Positions 1,934 to 45,715 of a stretch of 64,000 nucleotides of DNA are shown in pieces. Under the pieces are notes generated by a model. That model ran no database searches. It was not told where the DNA came from and saw only the letters and a list, made by a program, of their open reading frames with translations. The first letter of the stretch is position 1; every line of letters begins with the position of its first letter. The DNA lies in NCBI GenBank assembly GCA_000697475.1, contig JNEU01001076.1, positions 62,001 through 126,000 on the forward strand. Direction: 5' to 3'. The position numbers and the translations under genes were made by a program. Source of the DNA: Lichtheimia corymbifera B2541. Taxonomy: Eukaryota > Mucoromycota > Mucoromycetes > Mucorales > Lichtheimiaceae.

Positions 1934-3405
1934 TAAACATCCCTTCTTCCTCTGCTGTCACACAACAAGTCTACTGTTCAATGGGGTCCTTGTTGCCTTG
2001 TATAATCTTATTTATCCCTCATTCATATAGCTAAATGATGATTAAACGTGGTCATTGGAGGGGGAGAAGGTGTATATGGGAGAAGCTCACATCATCATAC
2101 TACAATGCTGGTTGCCATCATTCTTTGCGCACGCACATCCCCTTTATTGAAGGGATCCGATGAAAAGAGAACAAAGGGTCCAGCCATTTGATTAATTTTG
2201 TGGGTGACAGCAGCAGTCTCGCAGGATACACTATCATATCTACTTTTATTGTAGCCATGTGCACAACCGCTTGACTGAATAAACGATATCCAATAGCATT
2301 CATGTATACCGTTGTTGGTCAGATTGCATCATATTTTATACGCAGACGACAACGGTGTCGTTACGGCTCTAGTAATCTTTTTGAAAACACCTTATGAAGC
2401 AACACTGCAATTTGGAAGCTTGCTTATTTGTGGTGGTGTAATATATGCGAATACCTCTATATGCATTACTTGCATGCGTGCAGCATCAAGAAGCATCACT
2501 ACCCCTCAATTGGATGTAAACGGCTATAACAACGTAGAATGGATTGATGCCGCTACTTGGCCTTAGGAGACTCTATGTTATGCTACCATAGCTGTTCTAG
2601 CGGGAAAAGAAAACGTGATGGCATGTGAATAGTGGAAGGATATGGCCAGATAGAAAAATAAGGAGCGTTGATTACAAAAAAGTTGGAGCGGGAGATTTAC
2701 TAGCACCCCACGTTAGTAACGGATGGTCCAAGGACATGGAGCGTGCGTGCGCGTCTATGTGTGTGTGTGCGTATGAGTGGTTATTCATACGTTTATTTGA
2801 CCAAAGTGAGCTGACCATTCCAGTGAACTACTGAAAAGGGGATGTCCCCCCCTTTTTATCAATGCTTGCTCTCTCTCTCTCTCTCTCTATAAGCCCACCA
2901 CTTAATAACTCCCATATATGGGGTTTTCATCTTTCTGACAGATCCCTGATAGCACTCATAGGACACAAACAGCAAAATAGACAAGATGTATACAGTCAAT
3001 TAAGATTTTTAATCACACAGGAGTTTTCATGGTATTTGCGCGTGTGTTTACTACACGAATGAGAAAGCAAACTACATGTATTTTTGCGCACTTTGGCAAG
3101 TATCGATGAGAGTTTTCATTTATCCTCTCTGAATTACAGTTCCATCCATAACGGCCCAGCATGTACGCAACACCCAACAGGCTCATCCTTTCAACAACAT
3201 ATATAAATATGCGACTATCCAAACTTGACCCACCATTCCCATCCATTTCACAACACTTTCCCAACCCATTTGAATACACACAACACCCATTCATTCCACC
3301 TTTCTTCTTCCTTTTTTCCACATACCATCATGTACGAGCAAGGTAAAATCAAAACCTCAACAATCGCACTTTAAGCATACTCACGCGTGTTTAACAGCAT
3401 CATCC
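1934..3405. other. Intergenic, about 1.5 kb, includes (CT)n tract
   Basis: No supported gene. A (CT)n microsatellite covers about 2869-2889. A pyrimidine-rich leader (TTTCTTCTTCCTTTTTTCC) near 3301-3320 probably belongs to the promoter or 5' UTR of the RING/RRM gene starting at 3406. Short open frames lack codon structure and splice signals. Confidence 0.55.
2869..2889. repeat. (CT)n microsatellite
   Basis: An uninterrupted CT run of about ten units in the intergenic region before the RING/RRM gene. Confidence 0.9.
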
Positions 3406-9084: not shown

Positions 9085-10221
9085 TCATTTGCGTTTGAGA
9101 GCTTCAAGTCGCTTTGCAAGAGCATCAAAATCATCATCTTTTGGTTTGGGTGTGGTAGGTTGAGATACATTGTTGTTCTTTTTGGGAGCCGGTGGCATGT
9201 TGGATGGGATTTCTGGTAGGTCAAAGGTTGTCTCGCTTTCATCAACGTTGGTCGCCTACGATGTCAACATTAGCATATACTATTATTACCACCCATATAT
9301 AATCCTTACCGGCTGTGGAGAGGATGTGTCGTTCTCATTTGATGCGAGCAAGGGCGCCTCTGTTTGTGCAGGATATACCTAATCAACAAGTTGAGGATGC
9401 TTTCATATAGCGTAGGAAATGATTGTTGTTGTTGTTGTACCTCTTCTGCCAATCCACCTCCTCCGCCACTTGATGTATCATCGTTATCGTCATCAGCAGC
9501 CAAGACACTGGACACCCACATGATATCGTACGACTTTGCAATTTCTTCCAGGTAACGCTCGACTAGGAATGGATCGGGTGCGCTTACTTGTAGCTTGCAG
9601 ACAATCTATATCTCTCCACGTCAATCTTTGAAAAGTAACCACTCCCACACACACCCACTCCAACTTACTCGTTCATTCACCACGTTGTCCACATTATCGA
9701 GAGCATTGTATACAAACTCCTTTCCATACTTGGCAGCAAATAGATCTCTGACCTGAATGAATGATGCATATGTTAAAGCGAATATTGACCATGATGGATA
9801 GTCGCTTACATTGAGCAATTCCTTGATCTCATCCGTGCGTGGTGCTGCCCAAATGATAGTATTGACAGCCTCGGCAATACCAGGATCACATGTCCTATCA
9901 AGTGGTCTCTTTTAAGTGACACCTTGAAGGGGAGGAATCTATACTGTAATGCAAAGCTTACTTGTATTGTTCAATAAGTCCAAAACGCGCCAGCAACAAG
10001 TCGCAATACAACTCCAATATCTCCATAGCTTCAATAAATAGATCCTCACGAATAACATGCTCGACACGCACACGTGCGCTTTCTTCTTTGCCCTTATCCA
10101 AAAGAGTTGCGATTTCACGACGCTGATGTTGACAGAGCGATGTCTTTTTGGCTTGCAGCATCTTGAGTCGATTGATGGCCAGTTTCAGTTGTACTTTGAG
10201 TTTGTTGGGTTGGAATAGCAT
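9085..10221 (-). CDS. IST1: ESCRT-III-associated protein Ist1
   Basis: Complement(join(9085..9255, 9310..9378, 9441..9605, 9669..9752, 9810..9894, 9962..10221)), 277 residues, all phases closed. Ist1 regulates Vps4 recruitment and endosomal membrane scission. The N-terminal ESCRT-III-like helical core reads KLKVQLKLAINRLKML ... AMEILELYCDLLLARFGLI, then DPGIAEAVNTIIWAAPRTDEI, and VERYLEEIAKSYDI, all matching the Ist1/KIAA0174 family. An acidic Gly-rich linker and a Pro-rich stretch lead to the extreme C-terminus DALAKRLEALKRK, a type-1 MIT-interacting motif (L-x2-R-L-x2-L-K) for Vps4. A (GT)n tract of about 22 bases lies immediately upstream at 10232-10253. Confidence 0.93.
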
Positions 10222-37312: not shown

Positions 37313-38491
37313 GTAAGGGAGCGAGTACACAGTTGCTATGGAAGCATTTCAACCTGACATTGAGGAGCTCATCAGCAGCCTCTTTATTCCCAAGTTCAAG
37401 GGTCCTTTTCTCATAACAATATAACACCTCATATCATTATGCTGGTGCTTGTTCAGCTATCCACGACTTGAGAAGGTCATCATGGAAGTGTAGAGATATC
37501 TGTTGGGCGTCTGGAATGCAAACAGGACATGAACGGGATGTGCCTTTTCCCGAATCAGGTACGTTGATCAGGGAGATGATGGGTTATCATACGAAGGATA
37601 TAACGACATGGCAATTGACGCCGTTATTGTATACTTAGGATTAACGCTAGGATCCTCGTGATTAGAACCAATTTCTCTTGCACTCTTTGGGTTTATCCTA
37701 TATTCACACAACCACAAACTCAATATATTTAAAGCAGCAGCAGTGTATCAATCATCTCTCGAAAAACATCAGCAAATCCTCTACAGCACTTGCTACATTG
37801 TACTCTCCACATATCATGATGATATCCACAATGTGATGTTCGGCTACAGCAGCATCATTCTCCATATATAACACCACAACTTACCATACATGGATCATTC
37901 AATTACAATACTGCAAATCATCAACTTATCGACGTACATACCACACTGCTGGTATTGACTGCAACTCGATCGAACATGCATCACGCCTTGTGTAATCCAG
38001 GTGCCGCCATTGCATATGCTACGCACAATGTTATCGAATGAAGGGCAGAAGGAATATCCCAAGCAGTATAGATTTCATTACAAAAAGACTCTTTGATGTT
38101 GTATAAAGACCAGCAATGCTCCAGTGCTTGTATATCCTATCCTATTGTCAAATGTATAGCATTCAAATACATAAAGATGCAAGAGATATAAGGCTGATGA
38201 CCTATCTACATGATCGTATGCGAACATATGTGAAGGTGGTTAATATGCGAAACTCGTGTAGTAGTATGCTTGGATTGTTGTGAAGGATAATGCTCAGCGT
38301 GGCGTATTATACGCACGCATCACAAAAGATAGTAGCAGCAGTGGATTCGTTACGTAGCGTAGTAACATTGAGAAATAAAGCGTAAAAGTCAATGATCTCC
38401 ATGATGAAGTCGTCGGCTCAAATCACGTGACCTCTGGAAATTTTCCAAAAATCGAAAAATGAATCCAACAACCTGATTCAGGCTGTCAACG

Positions 38492-38513
38492 TTCCCCCAC
38501 CGGGAATTGAACC
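38492..38513. repeat. Target-site duplication, downstream copy (tRNA-Glu 3' end)
   Basis: A 22-bp perfect copy of the last 22 bases of the tRNA-Glu gene at 44459-44480. Read on the minus strand it runs from the first base of the B box (GGTTCAATTCC) to the discriminator base. It directly follows the last base of the retroelement. Since tRNA sequence on its other side is absent, this is the duplicated target, not a second tRNA gene. It leaves an isolated B box in the 3' flank. Confidence 0.9.
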
Positions 38514-38800
38514 TTATAATACTTTATTTTGATGTGGGGGGATTGATATCCAATATGAGGCATATAGTGATAAAAAGAAAAACCCACAAAGGGGAAAAGA
38601 AAAACGTGCTATACGTTACGGGGAGTGTAGCCTATGGAACACATCCTAACATCTGGCGATGACTGGATGGCATACAAAGAGAGAGAGAGGTGACAATGTA
38701 AAGTATGGAAAGTTACAAGTAAGGGGAAATAAACAAAGGGGGTGAAAGAGCTACATATTGAATGTGTGTAAAGTGGGTAATGAAATCAATGGACACCTGG

Positions 38801-41800
38801 TCAGTGCGCTTGTGACCTTGTGTCACCATTTCGACAGGACCTGCCAAGAGGCACAGCATTGGCTGCAGTTGCTTGTCTTGATGCTGATCTTGATGAACGT
38901 TGAGGATGAGATCTTGAAACTGGAACCGTATTGCTACCCGTGGCTGGCGGTGATTGATGGGTACGACGATTGTTATGGTGACCTTGAATGTGAGAATGGC
39001 GTTCATTTGATGGACGTGTAGGAGAATTACGATGATTGCGAGAGCTGGAGTGAACATTTGTAGTCGATGAGGAGGAATTTGTAACTCGATTGCTAAGGTG
39101 CTCACATCTGCGTATCCACATTCGATGACCAAAACGCAGCACATCACAAATAAGCCATCCATGGACTCGATCAGCATGTGAGCGACTACGAATGAGTTGT
39201 CGAAGCTGTCGAGTGTTTTCACCATCCGTGCCACCAACATCACCGAGTACAAAAGCTGTCAAGTCAACGCTGTATCCCATCTCTTCATAACGCCGTTTGA
39301 TATCAGCATAGCGATCCACCTTTCTTTGTCGTGCATGATCAATACAGGTGCCACCGTTTCGTGCTTGTTGGTTGTTGGATGTAGATTGCGCTGTAACAGT
39401 GACATCTGCAATAAACACCTTGCGTTGCGCTTCATCAAGTATAACCAAATCAGGGCGTTGAAGAGTGTTGTCAATGAGAGGAGGCACCTGGTTGGTTGTG
39501 ATTCGTGCGTCTGGGTGGTTGTATCGTGCAGCTTTGACAAGGCGATTGAGAAGCTGATTGTGGCGTTCGGATTGTAATACCTTGGAAGGCTGTGATGTAC
39601 AGAAACAAAGCACATGGTGTATATCCTCGCGTTGTCGACAATGAGTACAATTTTCAGAATCACCTAATCGCCATCGGTACTTGTTTGCATGAGTTGGAAG
39701 CATATCAAATCGAGCTTTGAGTGCAAAACGATAGGCAGCAGCATGTAAGGCATCATTGCGGATCCAGCGGTTGCTCATGTAATGTTGTAGAGTGGATGCT
39801 GATTGTCCTTGCAGTGGTTGTGCTTTCCATTTTTCAAGAAGTTTGGCTTGGCAAACACGTTTCAACCGACCAATAGCAGTAATACGACGGCGTTGGTTAC
39901 CACCAGATGCATTGGTACTAGGATCTTGACGTAGGCTGAAGGTGTATCCATCCTCTGCTTGTTCCAAAATAACCTCACATCCAACATGTTGTATGCATCG
40001 CGGCATGTTAGCTGAGGGATCGGCAGTATCCTTGTATCGACGTTTCTTAAGATTTTCATAACGACCTTGTAGGTAGCTGAGAATGTGCTGATCTGTGCAT
40101 TCGTCATGGCTGGCTGGAAAGTCGATGTTGGAATTGTTCTCGGGTTGATGATATCGCTGTTGTAAAAGAGTGCTGATCTCTTCCCGTATCATGTGTTGTA
40201 CTGCTGGATCTCTGGAGTTGAGTAAGCCCAAAATATGCACCACTTGTGTACTACTGGCCCAATCCATAGGCTCATAGAATCCAAGACCACCGTTATCAAT
40301 AGGCAAATGGTAGATGGCTAAGCTGGTCGATGATGGCAATTGAAGATACTTTCGTATGCATGTCCTGATGGTGCGTCCCAATCGGTTAGCCTGCCATGGT
40401 CCAAGCCCATTCAACCGAATATAATATTCAAGTTGGGGTAAGATGAAGGTCTTAAGAGCGTGGTGCTTTTGGAAAATGCGAAGACCTGAGCTACCAATGA
40501 TGTTGAGTTGCCGCTTGATGTGATTATGTAATCGATGAAAATCCGCCCAAATCGCATTGCGTTGCTGCCCCACACTGTTGCCCAAGTACTTCCAAGAATC
40601 TTTCAAGTCAATGCGTGGTATTCGTTCATTGTGATAACGTAGCTCCATACGTGGATCCGTGCGACGTTGCTGGTTGCTGTGTGCGATTGTTGCTGAGAAA
40701 CACGTTTTGGATGCATTGACGTTGAGCTTATGCTCATCCATGAATTCCACCACGATACGATGTAGACGCCTGAAGAGTTCTGGATCATGTGATATGATGG
40801 TGAGGTCGTCAGCAAGCAAGAGATGGTTGTGATAAAGTTGTTGTGGACGTGGTTGGACTTGATTGAGTCGATGAGAAAGCTCTAGCATGCATAAGGTGAA
40901 TATGAACGGTGATGCTGGATCGCCTTGCTTCGTGCCTTTGCTGAGATTGATGATATTTGTTGGCCCATCATCCGTGTGCACATAACAACTGATGTTGTCG
41001 TACATACTCATCACACGTGTTGCTGACATGTCGTCCAAACCGGCATACTCTAATGCTGCACGAATCTGAGTGTGTGATACACTTCCAAATGCATCTCGTA
41101 AATCATAGGAGCAAACGTATAAAGGCAAGTTGCGTCGTCGAGCTTTGCGAATTGCAGCATGGATATAGAAATCGTGCTCAATGCAACCTGGCGTTGGCAT
41201 GAACCCCTTTTGATTGTGTGGAATTCGATCGGTCAACGTCCTGCGTAACATGCGATCAATGATAGCTGAGTATATTTTGGATGTCGAGTTTTGCAGTGCG
41301 ATGGGACGCCAATTGCCAGGATCATTGGGATCACCTTTTTTGGATAAGAGTATGGTACGAGACATCTTCCAATGATCAGGCATCCACGCAAGTTGATAAC
41401 AACGACGATATATACATGTAAGCCATCGATGCAGCCCCTTGAACATATTCCAGACTTTATATGGAATTCCATCAAACCCAGGTGATGAGTTTTTGTTGAA
41501 TCGTTTGAGCACATCTTCCACATCATCATCCATAAAATCGCCGAGTGAGCGAGTGGTGTGAGTTGTTGGCCGTGGTATGGATGGAGGAGTGAAAGTGTCA
41601 GAATCGGATCCATATTGCGTATCAAAGTGGGTGTACAAGCGATCTGGTGATATGGGGCATGTTTGTCGAACATCGTTAGGATTGATCATTGAATCAAACG
41701 TCTGCTTGGCACGATGTCTATAGCGATGGAATAAAGATGTAGCTGCTCTGCCTTCACGAATTGCTGTCCTTTGGCGGAGAAGTCGTCGTCGTTCACCAGC

Positions 41801-44062
41801 TGACAGGCTATTACGTTCATTGTTGAGGCGATCTGTAATAGCAGCTTCATCATCCATTGTGCGCATGCCATTGTCTTCAGTGCGTCCTTGATGGTTGTTG
41901 CGTGGCTGTGGTCGAGTATATTCAGCAATCAAGGCGTACAGTGCATCATGGAATACATTATTCTTGGTGGCAATGGTATCACAATCATCGTCATCCTGAA
42001 CAAGATGTCGTTCCACAAGTTCATCGATAGCAGCCTGAAAACATAGTCGAGAATGTTTGTCTTTGAAGAGAGGCACTCGTAAATAGCGTCGTGATTGGCG
42101 TGTGCGCATCAAAGTATCAATGGATATATATTCTCGAGGTTGCTGTGTTGGTCTCCAAGGCGTGATTGGCTCGTCTATTTCCATTGCAGTATTATTCTCA
42201 TCGATTGGTGGTGGATTGTGTGTATGATGGTCACCCAATGATGGTGATGGAATACTGATAACCGGTGAGACAGAGCGAGTACGATGATGGGAACGTGTCG
42301 ATACAGGAGATCTGTGAACATCCATATCCATGAGTGCTTGGTCGAATGTGGCATCAAAAGATGCTGAGCGTTGTCGATTGAGTGGCTGACGAGGTGGTGA
42401 TGAGAACGATTTTGATGATGAGCCATTGTCGAGTGGTTGCTCAGGTGAAAGGGGATCTTCAAATAGCTGGTCCCATTCACGATTAACCTGCTCATGGATG
42501 CGTGATGCTTGTTCTGTAGCCAAAGTGTTCACAGGTCTATCGGAAAGGAGCCATGAATCCACACTAGCACTATCGTTGTTATTGTTGCCATGATCCTGTG
42601 ATTCCTGCTGCTGTTGTTCAATGCTGCTCGTTGTCGTAGCTGGTGCTGGTGCTGTGCTGGTGCCGTTGCTGTTGATCTGTGTGCTGTCATCATCGTTTGC
42701 TGGTGCGCCGGTGCTGACATCAGTTACCTCCAATACATGCTCATGATCACATGACTCATCCACAGTAGATGGCGGATTGGTAGACCTATTCTCCTCATGA
42801 TTAAGCGTAAGGGGAGATATACGGCCTGACGGTGGTGGTGGCAAGTCCAAATCACGTAGAAAGCGTACAGCGTCTGATGCAGCGGTAGATGAGATTGGTG
42901 GTGAATGAGAAGAATCATCATCTGTATTTGCATGAACGTGACGAGAGCATTGACGTGACTGAACAGAGGTACGATGTTGTGCTGATGTTGCTGGTGCTGT
43001 CGAAGTCGAAGAGCTGCCATGATGATCCACAAGAGCTCGGCGAGATCTACCTTGATGATCTGGTTGAGGTGATCGATCAGCCATAGATCGTTTGTGGCCA
43101 ATGATTTGCTGTGATGGTGATGGTGGTCTTTGCAAATCACGGAATGGCTCCAAACGAGGCGTGTTGTATGGCGTGCTATTGGTAGAGTGGGCGTCGGAAG
43201 TGTCATTGGTAGTGTCATTGGTAGTGGGAGTGGGTGATAACGAATGCTGCTGTTGTTGTTGACGTGTGCGTAGAGTGGAAATAGTGGTGTGAATGATGTT
43301 GTTGTGCTTCCAAACTTGGCGTTGTCGTAGTTGCTGCTTAATGTCGTTCACATCCCATCCTACAGTACCAATAATCTCCTTGATAATTTCCAAATCACGT
43401 CCAGCAAAAGGCAGTTTCCAAGAGTTGCTTGCCATAGCATCCACAAGGCCTGGATGTTGTTTGAGGTGTGTAGTCATCTCGCTGGATGATAGTAATCGAT
43501 CACATCCTTGACAAAACTCCTGGGCAAAGTCGTGCTCAATATCCTCATCCTCATTACAAGCATACTTCAAATGCTCTGTGATTGCACGTTTTTCAATGTC
43601 GCGATATCCACATTGCCGAGGACAACTCCAAACAGGACGCAGGTGTTGATAGTGTTGTTTGACGTGATGATCTTGCAAATGTGTAATATCAGTGAATCGT
43701 GCAGTGACACAACGAGGGCAAACAAAGGACTTGGTGTTAGAAATCACAGCAAAGTCGATGATCTGTGTGCCACTAGGAGCTGAGTCGATAAGAGGTGGTA
43801 TGCGTGCTTGTTCATCAGGCATAAATTCCTTGATGCATGAATGTGATAAAAGAGCCGGGCGAGACTTAAAAGTGGCATCACAATCATAGCATTCAAAGAT
43901 CACTGTGGTCGGTTGTTTGTGAACTTTGGTGCTATGTTGAGCAAGAGCACGACTCGTGTAGTAGAATTTGATGTCATCTTCTTCAGGGTCACAGAGACGA
44001 CAGGAGAAGATGGCAGTATCCACCTTGGCTCGGAAGATGATGCCGAGGTTTGGCGGTGTCAT
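38801..44062 (-). CDS. Retrotransposon polyprotein: zinc fingers, reverse transcriptase, CCHC, restriction-like endonuclease
   Basis: 1,753 residues, intact. N-terminus: C2H2/C2HC-type fingers at about 21-48 (CRLC...H...H), 58-76, 115-133, 147-169 and 184-203. A Myb-like segment follows at about 215-262 (conserved Trp, LRQRQVWK). R2 proteins bind their target with such ZF and Myb modules. A low-complexity Ser/His/Pro/Gln linker of about 450 residues follows. The reverse transcriptase (about 870-1130) shows SSPGFDGIPYKVW, GFMPTPGCIEHDF, YDLRDAFGSVSH (motif A Asp), KGTKQGDPASPF and LLADDLTIISHD (catalytic Asp pair). Near 1470 is the zinc knuckle CTHCRQREDIHHVLCFC. Near 1535-1555 is the PD...D nuclease signature (RPDLVILDE ... 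FIADVTV), followed by KVDRYADIKRRYEEMGY. All catalytic residues I would look for are present. Confidence 0.95.
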   Translation of the reverse strand: MTPPNLGIIFRAKVDTAIFSCRLCDPEEDDIKFYYTSRALAQHSTKVHKQPTTVIFECYDCDATFKSRPALLSHSCIKEFMPDEQARIPPLIDSAPSGTQIIDFAVISNTKSFVCPRCVTARFTDITHLQDHHVKQHYQHLRPVWSCPRQCGYRDIEKRAITEHLKYACNEDEDIEHDFAQEFCQGCDRLLSSSEMTTHLKQHPGLVDAMASNSWKLPFAGRDLEIIKEIIGTVGWDVNDIKQQLRQRQVWKHNNIIHTTISTLRTRQQQQQHSLSPTPTTNDTTNDTSDAHSTNSTPYNTPRLEPFRDLQRPPSPSQQIIGHKRSMADRSPQPDHQGRSRRALVDHHGSSSTSTAPATSAQHRTSVQSRQCSRHVHANTDDDSSHSPPISSTAASDAVRFLRDLDLPPPPSGRISPLTLNHEENRSTNPPSTVDESCDHEHVLEVTDVSTGAPANDDDSTQINSNGTSTAPAPATTTSSIEQQQQESQDHGNNNNDSASVDSWLLSDRPVNTLATEQASRIHEQVNREWDQLFEDPLSPEQPLDNGSSSKSFSSPPRQPLNRQRSASFDATFDQALMDMDVHRSPVSTRSHHRTRSVSPVISIPSPSLGDHHTHNPPPIDENNTAMEIDEPITPWRPTQQPREYISIDTLMRTRQSRRYLRVPLFKDKHSRLCFQAAIDELVERHLVQDDDDCDTIATKNNVFHDALYALIAEYTRPQPRNNHQGRTEDNGMRTMDDEAAITDRLNNERNSLSAGERRRLLRQRTAIREGRAATSLFHRYRHRAKQTFDSMINPNDVRQTCPISPDRLYTHFDTQYGSDSDTFTPPSIPRPTTHTTRSLGDFMDDDVEDVLKRFNKNSSPGFDGIPYKVWNMFKGLHRWLTCIYRRCYQLAWMPDHWKMSRTILLSKKGDPNDPGNWRPIALQNSTSKIYSAIIDRMLRRTLTDRIPHNQKGFMPTPGCIEHDFYIHAAIRKARRRNLPLYVCSYDLRDAFGSVSHTQIRAALEYAGLDDMSATRVMSMYDNISCYVHTDDGPTNIINLSKGTKQGDPASPFIFTLCMLELSHRLNQVQPRPQQLYHNHLLLADDLTIISHDPELFRRLHRIVVEFMDEHKLNVNASKTCFSATIAHSNQQRRTDPRMELRYHNERIPRIDLKDSWKYLGNSVGQQRNAIWADFHRLHNHIKRQLNIIGSSGLRIFQKHHALKTFILPQLEYYIRLNGLGPWQANRLGRTIRTCIRKYLQLPSSTSLAIYHLPIDNGGLGFYEPMDWASSTQVVHILGLLNSRDPAVQHMIREEISTLLQQRYHQPENNSNIDFPASHDECTDQHILSYLQGRYENLKKRRYKDTADPSANMPRCIQHVGCEVILEQAEDGYTFSLRQDPSTNASGGNQRRRITAIGRLKRVCQAKLLEKWKAQPLQGQSASTLQHYMSNRWIRNDALHAAAYRFALKARFDMLPTHANKYRWRLGDSENCTHCRQREDIHHVLCFCTSQPSKVLQSERHNQLLNRLVKAARYNHPDARITTNQVPPLIDNTLQRPDLVILDEAQRKVFIADVTVTAQSTSNNQQARNGGTCIDHARQRKVDRYADIKRRYEEMGYSVDLTAFVLGDVGGTDGENTRQLRQLIRSRSHADRVHGWLICDVLRFGHRMWIRRCEHLSNRVTNSSSSTTNVHSSSRNHRNSPTRPSNERHSHIQGHHNNRRTHQSPPATGSNTVPVSRSHPQRSSRSASRQATAANAVPLGRSCRNGDTRSQAH

Positions 44063-44452
44063 GTGCGTGAAATAAGGTTGGTGTTACTGTGCGAAGACTA
44101 TATATATATATGTGTACGTTGGATGCTTGGCGTAGTCGTTCACAATGTCGAAATGGAGGTGACAAAAGGTGTGTCAATCGCGGTGTAAAAAGAGCAGGTG
44201 AGAGAGGCGGAGAGGCTGATTATTATGCAACTGATCGAAGGTACTGTTCCTTAGGCACAAGGCAAGAGATGAGTGCTTGAAAGATTCCAAGGTTGTGCAA
44301 AAAAAGCTTGCGTTGCAATGAATTCGTTGGCGAATGTCGAAGACTCGTTCGTTCACCACAAGACTAGTATCGATCGGTTCGTCTCAATAAGCTCTTTCGA
44401 AGGTACTTAATGCAAAAAGTACGTTGTGATAGCAGATTGACTCAAAAAATGC

Positions 44453-44457
44453 AAAAA
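44453..44457 (-). terminator. Pol III terminator for tRNA-Glu, supplied by the retroelement
   Basis: Reading down from the tRNA, the sequence after the discriminator base is A then TTTTT (44457-44453), GCA and TTTTTT (44449-44444). Runs of five and six T are efficient Pol III terminators. They belong to the retroelement's first 15 bases, not to the tRNA's original flank, which now lies beyond the element and has its first T5 only about 32 bases past the tRNA end (38455-38459). Confidence 0.7.
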
Positions 44458-44458
44458 T

Positions 44459-44480
44459 TTCCCCCACCGGGAATTGAACC
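44459..44480. repeat. Target-site duplication, tRNA-side copy
   Basis: The 22 bases that form the 3' end of the tRNA-Glu gene (T arm from the B box, acceptor 3' strand and discriminator base), repeated exactly at 38492-38513 on the other side of the retroelement. The identity stops on both sides: preceding bases are CCCG here and ATAA there, following bases are A here and C there. Confidence 0.92.
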
Positions 44481-44530
44481 CGGGCCACCGGTGTGAGAGA
44501 CCGGGATCCTAGCCACTAGACCATAGAGGA
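44459..44530 (-). tRNA. tRNA-Glu (anticodon CUC)
   Basis: 72 nt, no intron. On the minus strand it starts TCCTCTATGGTCTAGTGG (A box GTCTAGTGGCTAGG). The anticodon arm is CCGGT-CTCTCAC-ACCGG with CTC at positions 34-36. The T arm contains the B box GGTTCAATTCC, and the gene ends GGGGGA plus discriminator A. The acceptor stem pairs TCCTCTA with TGGGGGA using two G-U pairs. The closeness to eukaryotic tRNA-Glu(CTC) is strong. The gene is intact despite the insertion, because the element entered at its 3' boundary and duplicated the 3' end behind itself. Confidence 0.96.
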
Positions 44531-45715
44531 CGTTTTCTTGTCTTCTTATTTGACACGTCCGTGGTGAGATGGTCAACCTCGAGTTGCCATTTTCGTCAGC
44601 TGGATTTTGTTTTTCTGAAACTTCTTTATTATTATCCACTCGATTGTTCTGAGGATCATTATTTGTTCTAGCGTATGGATGTTTGAATAAACCCGGGTCT
44701 TTCGTCTTGTATTTCTATTTGTGAGCCGTTTTGTTGAAGCAGTTGTGATTGCTTATTGATTGACGTGGAAGACTCCTTGTGATTACTCGATTTGGATATT
44801 TGAACACTCTCGCTACAAGCCTTACTGCCCTACGTCTCATATTTGACACGGCGCGTGGTGATATATATACTGGTGGCCTGCCTGGTTTGGAAGGTCGTTG
44901 TATGTTGATGAAAGAAGTACCATGGTGTAGCGGAGTAGCCAAGGATATCGATATTGAAGACGCCATCTTATTTGGGAGGATCGTTGTGGAACAATTTGGA
45001 ATAGAAGTAGTCTGGTGGTTCATTGGTCGGAGTGAAGTGGCAGCCTGCAGCCCACAAGCGGCTCCCTTCCTCCTTATTATACATGGCCAATGTTTTTGCA
45101 TGAATGTGAAACCTTTTCTGTGGCTGATCCCTTGCCAGTAAAAGGGACATCAAAATAAACTTTTTAGAATCATCGTTTTCTTTCTCTAATTTTGTGGTTG
45201 CCTGGTATCAGAACGACGTGGTCAGAACGGTACAGGAACGCATTATTATACCTTTAATTGTCTACATCTGTCAAAGGACTACCGAGTTATAAGAATCCCC
45301 CTTTCCTCACTTTACATTGTTATTACACCACGTCTGGCACATCACACGTATCATATTTTTTATACCGCTCGCTACTACATAAACCTCAAAACTTCCATAT
45401 AAGGAAGGTAGTACAATGGCGTTGTGGCTCGTTTCATCATCAGCATCCAATGAAAACGCTGAAAAATTTCGGACCGAGAACCGTGCCACTATTGCGCCCA
45501 AACGCCACAAAAGGCATTTTATTCATCCGCTCTGATCCCACTTGCATATTGCATGTTTTCCATACACCTTTTTTATTTATAACACACAGCCGTTTAAAAC
45601 ACATATAAGCATTTCCCACCAATCTGCATGCGATACATTTGTAAATTCCTTCCTTTTAATTATATAACATGCTACAAACACGAAAAAAGATTTACATATA
45701 CAATGTTTTATCCTA
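44531..45715. other. tRNA 5' flank and intergenic, possible LTR remnant
   Basis: About 1.2 kb upstream of tRNA-Glu and beyond the 3' end of EMC10. No gene is supported. The motif TGGTATCAGAACGA at 45203-45216 resembles a primer-binding site of LTR retroelements primed by initiator tRNA-Met. Upstream of it is an AATAAA (45153-45158). Many LTR elements integrate upstream of Pol III genes, so a degraded solo LTR is possible but not demonstrated. Confidence 0.35.

What the first reader, a model, noticed from the sequence alone, without database searches (positions are those of the whole stretch)
38492..44530. Intact R2-like retrotransposon inserted precisely at the 3' end of a tRNA-Glu gene
The sequence shows an intact 1,753-codon ORF with zinc fingers, RT and restriction-like endonuclease, flanked by a perfect 22-bp duplication that is exactly the last 22 bases of tRNA-Glu(CUC). 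Known RLE-type elements favour 28S/18S rDNA, spliced-leader or snRNA genes. tRNA-proximal non-LTR elements that I know of (Dictyostelium TRE) use an AP endonuclease and insert at a distance. An RLE element landing exactly at a mature tRNA 3' end would be a distinct target choice and may be an undescribed family.
Basis: partly seen in the sequence, partly recalled or inferred. Interest (0 to 1): 0.95.

Follow-up and report, generated by a model that had tools for sequence, protein, structure and literature searches.

The report
Fungal retrotransposon targeting tRNA-Glu genes
This is an apparently intact jumping gene of the fungus Lichtheimia that inserts itself exactly behind glutamate tRNA genes and leaves the tRNA gene whole; related elements were already reported to target tRNA genes elsewhere, but this fungal family looks undescribed.

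Summary
A 5,945-bp element (38514-44458, minus strand) with one 1,753-codon ORF lies between two perfect 22-bp repeats; the upstream one is nucleotides 52-73 of tRNA-Glu(CUC). In the host genome a second copy with an open ORF (74-77% identical) and two older copies stand in tandem behind a tRNA-Glu(UUC), with perfect 22-bp spacers carrying the UUC-type base; a remnant stands behind a third tRNA-Glu. Four unoccupied tRNA-Glu genes have a single 22-mer, and two of them have a 3' flank like that beyond the window's second repeat. So the repeat is a target-site duplication. A restriction-like endonuclease is supported by motifs and a model matching R2 structures. 'R2-like' fits the architecture, not the clade: the fungal family is a separate deep lineage of unresolved placement. 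The novelty claim is weakened: Kojima and Jurka 2015 report NeSL-related families specific for tRNA-Pro, tRNA-Arg and tRNA-Glu (PMC4640811). New here: a fungal family, cut positions that restore the tRNA, and a Pol III-terminator-like 5' end.

The parts
44459..44530 (-). tRNA-Glu(CUC), intact, the target gene
   Evidence: ARAGORN; Rfam RF00005 57.5 bits
44459..44480 (-). upstream copy of the 22-bp target-site duplication = tRNA positions 52-73 (5' edge of the B box to the discriminator base)
   Evidence: standard numbering and B-box definition recalled
38492..38513 (-). downstream copy of the 22-bp target-site duplication
   Evidence: 22/22 identical to the upstream copy
38514..44458 (-). the retrotransposon, 5,945 bp
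   Evidence: boundaries set by the duplication and by homologous boundaries of C374 copies A and B
44444..44457 (-). T5 and T6 runs at the element's 5' end (ATTTTTGCATTTTTT), Pol III terminator-like, with homologous T runs in C374 copies A, B and C
   Evidence: function inferred
44063..44458 (-). 5' UTR
   Evidence: 83% (283 bp) to copy A and 73% (376 bp) to copy B; homologous remnant behind tRNA-Glu on C277
38801..44062 (-). single ORF, 1,753 aa
   Evidence: dN/dS 0.089 against copy A, dS saturated
43433..44062 (-). N-terminal region with zinc-finger-like Cys/His patterns, probable DNA binding
   Evidence: read by eye; weak sub-cut-off zf-TRAF match; low-confidence model
40580..41341 (-). reverse transcriptase domain (residues 908-1161)
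   Evidence: Pfam RVT_1 E 6e-28
39599..39649 (-). CCHC motif (residues 1472-1488) before the endonuclease
   Evidence: C238, H249 and C254 of alignment A3 invariant, C241 nearly invariant, in 20 sequences
39308..39457 (-). restriction-like endonuclease core RPD..D..K...Y (residues 1536-1585)
   Evidence: P303, D304, D319 of A3 invariant, R302, K347, Y351 nearly invariant; model pLDDT 85.6 matches R2 structures
38514..38800 (-). 3' UTR; last ~155 nt conserved, with AATAAA shortly before the end; probable RT start signal
   Evidence: four copies compared; no significant common RNA fold
38400..38491 (-). original 3' flank of the tRNA-Glu gene, with TCACGTGA at 38423-38430 as in unoccupied tRNA-Glu(CUC) genes

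Best explanation
It is an RLE-type non-LTR retrotransposon specific for tRNA-Glu genes, moving by target-primed reverse transcription. Proposed course (inferred from junctions unless marked): the protein recognises the 3' part of the tRNA-Glu gene; the endonuclease nicks the bottom strand at the 5' edge of the B box (between tRNA positions 51 and 52); the freed 3' end primes copying of the element RNA from its conserved 3' end; the top strand is cut after the discriminator base (position 73). The 22-base stagger is filled in, giving the 22-bp duplication (shown), so the upstream tRNA gene stays complete (shown). The element's first bases bring T5 and T6 runs (shown) that can stop Pol III (inferred). 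Because the site is rebuilt, further copies can enter next to the tRNA and build tandem arrays (array shown; order of entry inferred).
For: 5' junctions: 5 of 5 recognised element 5' ends directly follow the 22-mer: window, C374 A, B, C, and the C277 remnant; three of these follow a complete tRNA-Glu (two isoacceptors), B and C follow the spacer after the preceding copy. 3' junctions: 4 of 4 recognised 3' ends (window, C374 A and B, C78) directly precede GGTTCRATTC, 3 of them the whole 22-mer. The variable base follows the local tRNA: A at the CUC site, G at the UUC site. The 3' flank beyond the window's second repeat resembles those of two unoccupied tRNA-Glu(CUC) genes, with GAGGTCACGTGA at about 50-60 nt. 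C374 A and B are diverged from each other (75% protein identity over 977 columns), so the array is not a simple tandem duplication. RT and RLE. Selection on the ORF: dN/dS 0.089, RT-RLE part 0.042.
Against: Few insertions: two copies with open ORFs, one with a frame break and a stop, two remnants, one 3'-end fragment. The C78 fragment is followed by only 10 bases of the target and no tRNA was found. The empty sites are paralogous genes, not the same locus in another strain. No biochemistry. dS against copy A is saturated, so the dN/dS values are rough. Copy A carries a 211-bp insert in its 5' UTR. Copy B is a mosaic of two lineages, so not every copy records one clean insertion.
Confidence: 0.9

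Rival explanations
1. The 22-bp repeat is part of the element (an element that carries a tRNA-Glu piece), and its place beside tRNA-Glu reflects recombination rather than target choice.
For: The three complete 3' junctions end in the 22-mer; recombination between family members did occur (copy B).
Against: The variable base follows the local isoacceptor, A at the CUC site and G at the UUC site; the tRNA bodies differ; the flank beyond the second repeat is that of a tRNA-Glu gene; the C78 fragment has only the first 10 bases.
Confidence: 0.04
2. It is a true R2-clade element that has moved from 28S rDNA to tRNA-Glu, as R8 and R9 moved within the rDNA.
For: Same domain order; the best solved-structure matches are R2 proteins, though no other RLE lineage appears among the solved-structure matches at all; an R2-plus-fungal clade is not rejected, AU p 0.213.
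Against: R2 rows form their own clade without the fungal rows, 99 SH-aLRT (together with Leptotrombidium) and 100/100; protein hits outside fungi include several with RNase H or Ulp1 domains as described for Utopia/NeSL, though those searches reach only proteins sharing short words and of similar length; no HDV-like ribozyme found; PMC5035012 states that R2 had not been found outside animals (passages).
Confidence: 0.1
3. It is a fungal branch of the Utopia/NeSL group that changed its target from U2 snRNA genes to tRNA-Glu.
For: Trees join it with oomycete-type RNase H-bearing proteins, which fit the published description of oomycete Utopia (84 SH-aLRT; 71/23); reptile Utopia make 20-bp duplications and a wasp Utopia can sit in tandem (PMC4640811 section 6).
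Against: That support is weak; a clade with the animal NeSL/Utopia-type rows has AU p 0.087; no RNase H or Ulp1 domain found.
Confidence: 0.4
4. The C374 array and the window copy arose by segmental duplication or unequal exchange of one old insertion, not by repeated targeted insertion.
For: Copies stand head to tail with identical 22-bp spacers; copy B is a mosaic, which shows exchange between lineages.
Against: C374 A and B are only 75% identical; in both halves B is nearer to other lineages than to its neighbour A: its RT half is nearest to the window copy, its RLE half to L. ornata P0002.
Confidence: 0.05

Closest known systems
LIN25_SM (and LIN15_SM), R5/LIN lineage, planarian (PMC4640811)
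   Same: NeSL-related (RLE-clade) non-LTR retrotransposons reported as specific for tRNA-Glu (LIN25_SM) and tRNA-Arg (LIN15_SM) genes (section 10).
   Different: Animal host; exact position in the tRNA and target alteration are in a supplement I could not read; sequence relation to the fungal family not testable here.
NeSL-1_TV (PMC4640811)
   Same: NeSL-related family specific for tRNA-Pro genes.
   Different: Other host and tRNA; its phylogenetic place is unresolved in the paper.
Utopia (NeSL clade; U2 snRNA genes)
   Same: RLE element in a low-copy small-RNA gene; 20-bp duplications in reptiles, tandem insertion in a wasp, several families kept in one genome.
   Different: Target is the U2 gene; oomycete families carry RNase H; the paper counts disrupted U2 genes, whereas here the tRNA gene is left complete.
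R2 (28S rDNA)
   Same: Single ORF, RT, CCHC and RLE; C-terminal fold match.
   Different: Target 28S rDNA; HDV-like ribozyme at the 5' end (PMC12203849, passages), none found here; separate clade in the trees.
Dada DNA transposons; Dictyostelium TRE retrotransposons (TRE recalled)
   Same: Target tRNA genes.
   Different: Dada are DNA transposons inserting within tRNA genes, mostly at nucleotides 8-13 or around the anticodon (PMC8869645, passages); TRE use an AP endonuclease and insert at a distance (recalled).

Membership tests
RLE-type non-LTR retrotransposon | Non-LTR reverse transcriptase, no terminal repeats of its own | tested here: met
   RVT_1 6e-28; phmmer to an R2 protein 1.7e-39; repeat search of 38300-44700 finds, at the ends, only the 22-bp duplication, one internal 51-nt direct pair at 71%, and no inverted pair
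RLE-type non-LTR retrotransposon | C-terminal CCHC plus PD..D restriction-like endonuclease | tested here: met
   AF2 model pLDDT 85.6, Foldseek best 7 all R2, E 4.9e-15 to 6.8e-9
Target-specific element | Several copies at the same site of different target genes, with target duplication | tested here: met
   C356 and C374 sites plus C277 remnant; exception C78
R2 clade | RT falls inside R2 | tested here: not met
   R2 rows separate, 100/100, with three R2 rows only; sister position not rejected
R2 clade | 28S rDNA target | tested here: not met
   tRNA-Glu target
R2 clade | HDV-like ribozyme at the 5' end | tested here: inconclusive
   no Rfam match other than the tRNA at E up to 1 in 38000-44700; diverged ribozymes may be missed
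Utopia / NeSL clade | RT phylogeny with Utopia or NeSL | tested here: inconclusive
   71/23 with oomycete-type RNase H proteins; p-AU 0.087 with the animal set; no named reference sequence
Utopia | U2 snRNA gene target | tested here: not met
   tRNA-Glu target
R5/LIN lineage (LIN25_SM) | RT phylogeny with R5/LIN | not testable with these tools
   no sequence named LIN or R5 in the listings (120 of 461 listed)
CRE, R4, HERO | RT phylogeny | not testable with these tools
   no labelled references retrieved

The most novel reading that the evidence does not exclude
A new deep fungal lineage of RLE retrotransposons that treats a tRNA gene as a self-restoring attachment site: the cuts span exactly B-box edge to mature 3' end, the element brings its own Pol III terminator, and its RNA 5' end is made by tRNase Z cutting a tRNA-element read-through transcript directly after the discriminator base, the job that a self-cleaving ribozyme does for R2.
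Probability: 0.17. Interest if true: 0.85.

Novelty: new variant of a known kind. Interest (0 to 1): 0.6.

Why it matters
It extends tRNA-specific RLE elements to fungi and shows an insertion geometry that leaves the host tRNA gene complete. At least two copies with open ORFs, far apart in synonymous sites, persist in a genome in which I found only seven tRNA-Glu genes, so a harmless, rebuilt site may explain survival on a low-copy target. If the protein is active, its specificity for the end of a tRNA gene could be of use for RNA-templated insertion at tRNA loci, and the tRNase Z idea is directly testable.

Tried and rejected
Considered and rejected: element-borne 22-mer and simple duplication (see rivals). 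The other 21 of the 27 ORF matches in the genome, at 23-37% identity, were not counted as copies: ARAGORN found a tRNA in none of the 21 loci; of three whose ORFs I put to Pfam, two match an AP-type endonuclease domain just under Pfam's cut-off (24.2 and 24.4 bits against 24.5) and one shows only RT and zf-RVT. Relatives in viral and prokaryote contig collections: none. Conserved RNA fold of the 3' end: weak, z-scores -1.6, 0.6 and 0.1. N-terminal model: pLDDT 49.5, not interpreted. Rfam ribozyme search: only the tRNA. The bacterial-type promoter/terminator scan was not used. In one search the C277 row was cut from wrong coordinates and one row is a one-base placeholder; both rows are ignored. 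Trees: 46 of the 211 database proteins on hand, plus the window, C374 A, C374 B and three R2 chains, were prepared (52 rows). Dropped: P0001 (99% identical to the window), P0012, P0020, P0177 (48 rows used). Dropped: further long-branch and near-duplicate rows (33 of 52 used). C374 B proved to be a mosaic after the trees were built, so its place inside the fungal clade, and the window-A pairing against it (99/99), should not be leaned on; the deep branches were not rerun without it.
Full report
What is there. On the minus strand, tRNA-Glu(CUC) (44530-44459) is followed directly by a 5,945-bp element (44458-38514) with one ORF of 1,753 codons (44062-38801), and then by a second copy of the last 22 bases of the tRNA gene (38513-38492). 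The 22-mer occurs nowhere else in the window with up to 5 mismatches, and exactly at only 9 places in the 35-Mb genome: six tRNA-Glu 3' ends and three element 3' junctions. A protein of Lichtheimia corymbifera JMRC:FSU:9682 (P0001) is 99% identical, so the host is that species or very near it.

Other copies. Searching the host genome with the ORF gave 27 matches; 5 of them at 71-100%, plus an 81-residue piece at 52%, are this family, on C356 (window) and C374. On C374 a tRNA-Glu(UUC) is followed by copy A (ORF open over 1,721 codons, 74-77% identical), 22 bp, copy B (one in-frame stop and a frame break; 83-86%), 22 bp, and copy C, a remnant. The three 22-mers on C374 are identical and carry GGTTCG, the UUC form, while both in the window carry GGTTCA, the CUC form. 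On C277 a third tRNA-Glu (UUC) is followed by ATTTTTGCATTTTT and then by a 69%-identical remnant of the element's 5' UTR. A 5'-truncated 3'-end fragment on C78 is followed by GGTTCGATTC and then by other sequence, with no tRNA found. Of seven tRNA-Glu genes found with the tRNA as probe (such counts are lower bounds), three are occupied or bear a remnant and four are not (C350, C225, C322, C199).

Empty sites. Two unoccupied tRNA-Glu(CUC) genes (C350, C225) have GAGGTCACGTGA about 50-60 nt downstream. The sequence beyond the window's second 22-mer has the same motif: TCACGTGA at offset 61 against 55 and 55. C322, also CUC, has TCACGTGA at offset 30 and two mismatches in the 22-mer; C199 (UUC) has none. 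So the window's second 22-mer with what follows is most simply the old 3' flank of the tRNA gene, and the duplication a product of insertion. This comparison uses paralogous genes; a same-locus empty site was not available.

The protein. RVT_1 matches residues 908-1161. The CCHC motif C1472..C1488 and the endonuclease core R1536-P-D, D1553, K1581, Y1585 are invariant or nearly invariant among 20 aligned relatives. A model of residues 1235-1660 (pLDDT 85.6) has R2 structures as its seven best Foldseek matches, E 4.9e-15 to 6.8e-9; the next match is at 0.033. N-terminal Cys/His patterns look like several zinc fingers but reach no Pfam cut-off, and the N-terminal model is poor. Against copy A the ORF shows dN/dS 0.089 (0.042 in RT-RLE), with saturated dS: protein function was kept over a long time.

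Clade. The fungal family (two Lichtheimia species, Umbelopsis) with two metagenome proteins is a clade at 100/100. R2 (three rows) forms its own clade (100/100). Deep order is unresolved: trees join the fungal family to oomycete-type RNase H-bearing proteins at 84 SH-aLRT and 71/23; a clade with R2 (AU p 0.213) or with the animal NeSL/Utopia-type set (p 0.087) is not rejected. Labels such as Utopia or NeSL rest on hallmark domains (RNase H, Ulp1) and host groups named in PMC4640811, not on named reference sequences.

Copy B is a mosaic. Found while checking this report: at sites where the window and L. ornata P0002 differ, the open 3' piece of C374 B follows the window in its RT half (97 against 4 sites) and P0002 in its endonuclease half (0 against 99), with a break near its residue 584. 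Its RT half is 92-99% identical to the window past the first block, its RLE half 97-100% to P0002 until the divergent tail (87%). Either elements of two lineages recombined or switched templates, or the assembly is chimeric there. It means that an ornata-like lineage has been in this genome, and that B's tree position is unreliable. In no half is B nearest to its neighbour A (A-B 75% overall).

How it most likely works. Element 3' ends abut the 5' edge of the B box (position 52) and element 5' ends abut the discriminator base (position 73). Under target-primed reverse transcription this means a bottom-strand nick at 51/52 and a top-strand cut after 73, with a 22-base stagger. The tRNA gene upstream remains complete. 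The first bases of the element, shared by the window copy and C374 A, B and C, are T5-6 and T6 runs, which can serve as a Pol III terminator; unoccupied CUC genes C350 and C225 have TTTTGCACTTTTTG about 30 nt downstream. In the C374 array the copy next to the tRNA has an open ORF, the next is broken and the farthest is a remnant, which fits repeated entry beside the tRNA, newest first. Steps not shown: nicking, priming, recognition, transcription.

An idea to test. The element starts exactly where tRNase Z cuts pre-tRNA (recalled knowledge). If part of the element RNA comes from read-through of the tRNA gene, tRNase Z would make its exact 5' end, as the ribozyme does for R2 (PMC12203849, passages). 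Against it: the T runs at the element's start, and a T7 run in its 5' UTR, should stop Pol III, so a Pol II read-through would be needed, and no transcript data were available. One paper search on tRNase Z and retrotransposons (10 of 15 listed) showed nothing on this in titles or abstract starts.

What is known. PMC4640811 (sections 6 and 10 and passages seen) reports NeSL-1_TV as tRNA-Pro-specific, LIN15_SM as tRNA-Arg-specific and LIN25_SM as tRNA-Glu-specific, treated there as families related to NeSL, a clade it lists among RLE-encoding ones. PMC5035012 (passages) lists tRNA genes among non-LTR targets and states that R2 had not been found outside animals. Hence 'RLE element at tRNA' is not new. 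I saw no paper on this fungal family in the listings of searches. The L. corymbifera genome paper (PMC4133162, passages) mentions non-LTR retrotransposons in the passages seen only in general, and counts 174 tRNAs. PMC10886601 (passages) concerns LTR-type elements with tRNA-like sequences and does not bear on this family.

Verdict. A real, probably recently active (inferred from the open ORF, the perfect duplication and the 99% identical protein in FSU:9682), tRNA-Glu-specific RLE retrotransposon family in Mucoromycota: a new variant of a known kind, with a tRNA-restoring geometry.

Noticed in passing
C374 copy B, G000:C374:3593-6502 (L003): Mosaic: RT half follows the window copy (97 against 4 diagnostic sites), endonuclease half follows Lichtheimia ornata P0002 (99 against 0), break near residue 584 of the open 3' piece. 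Recombination, template switching or a chimeric assembly.
   Followed up: partly
G000 contigs C364, C303, C373, C169, C98, C247, C195, C258, C15, C348, C415: 11 of the 63 scored tRNA genes lie within 1.5 kb of a contig start (binomial P about 2e-8 under even spread, noticed first and tested afterwards): the assembly breaks beside tRNA genes, which suggests unassembled repeats there. Only 63 of 1109 candidates were scored.
   Followed up: partly
L068 (C195, tRNA-Ile) 39-399; L064 (C199, tRNA-Glu) 9190-9531; C374 near 3214-3255: A repeat of about 360 bp, 94% identical, LTR-like (TGTCGCAGCAACA at one end), lies 3' of two different tRNA genes, in opposite orientations relative to them; a 45-bp piece of it lies inside C374 copy C near its 5' end. 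Possibly an LTR element that settles near tRNA genes.
   Followed up: partly
C374 copies A (5' UTR 46-256) and B (5' UTR 37-247): A 211-bp insert, 99% identical, sits at nearly the same place in opposite orientation in two copies whose neighbouring 5' UTR is only 70% identical; it looks like a small DNA transposon or a converted segment.
   Followed up: partly
window 38423-38430; L031, L032, L034: A palindrome TCACGTGA lies 30-61 nt 3' of the tRNA in 4 of 4 tRNA-Glu(CUC) 3' flanks examined, and not in the one UUC flank examined; role unknown.
   Followed up: no
L012, L013, L015 (contigs C1, C406, C93, each at 1900-2562); L011, L014: Identically placed RT matches near contig ends; the ORF in L011 matches an AP-type endonuclease domain just under Pfam's cut-off: possibly a subtelomeric LINE.
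   Followed up: partly
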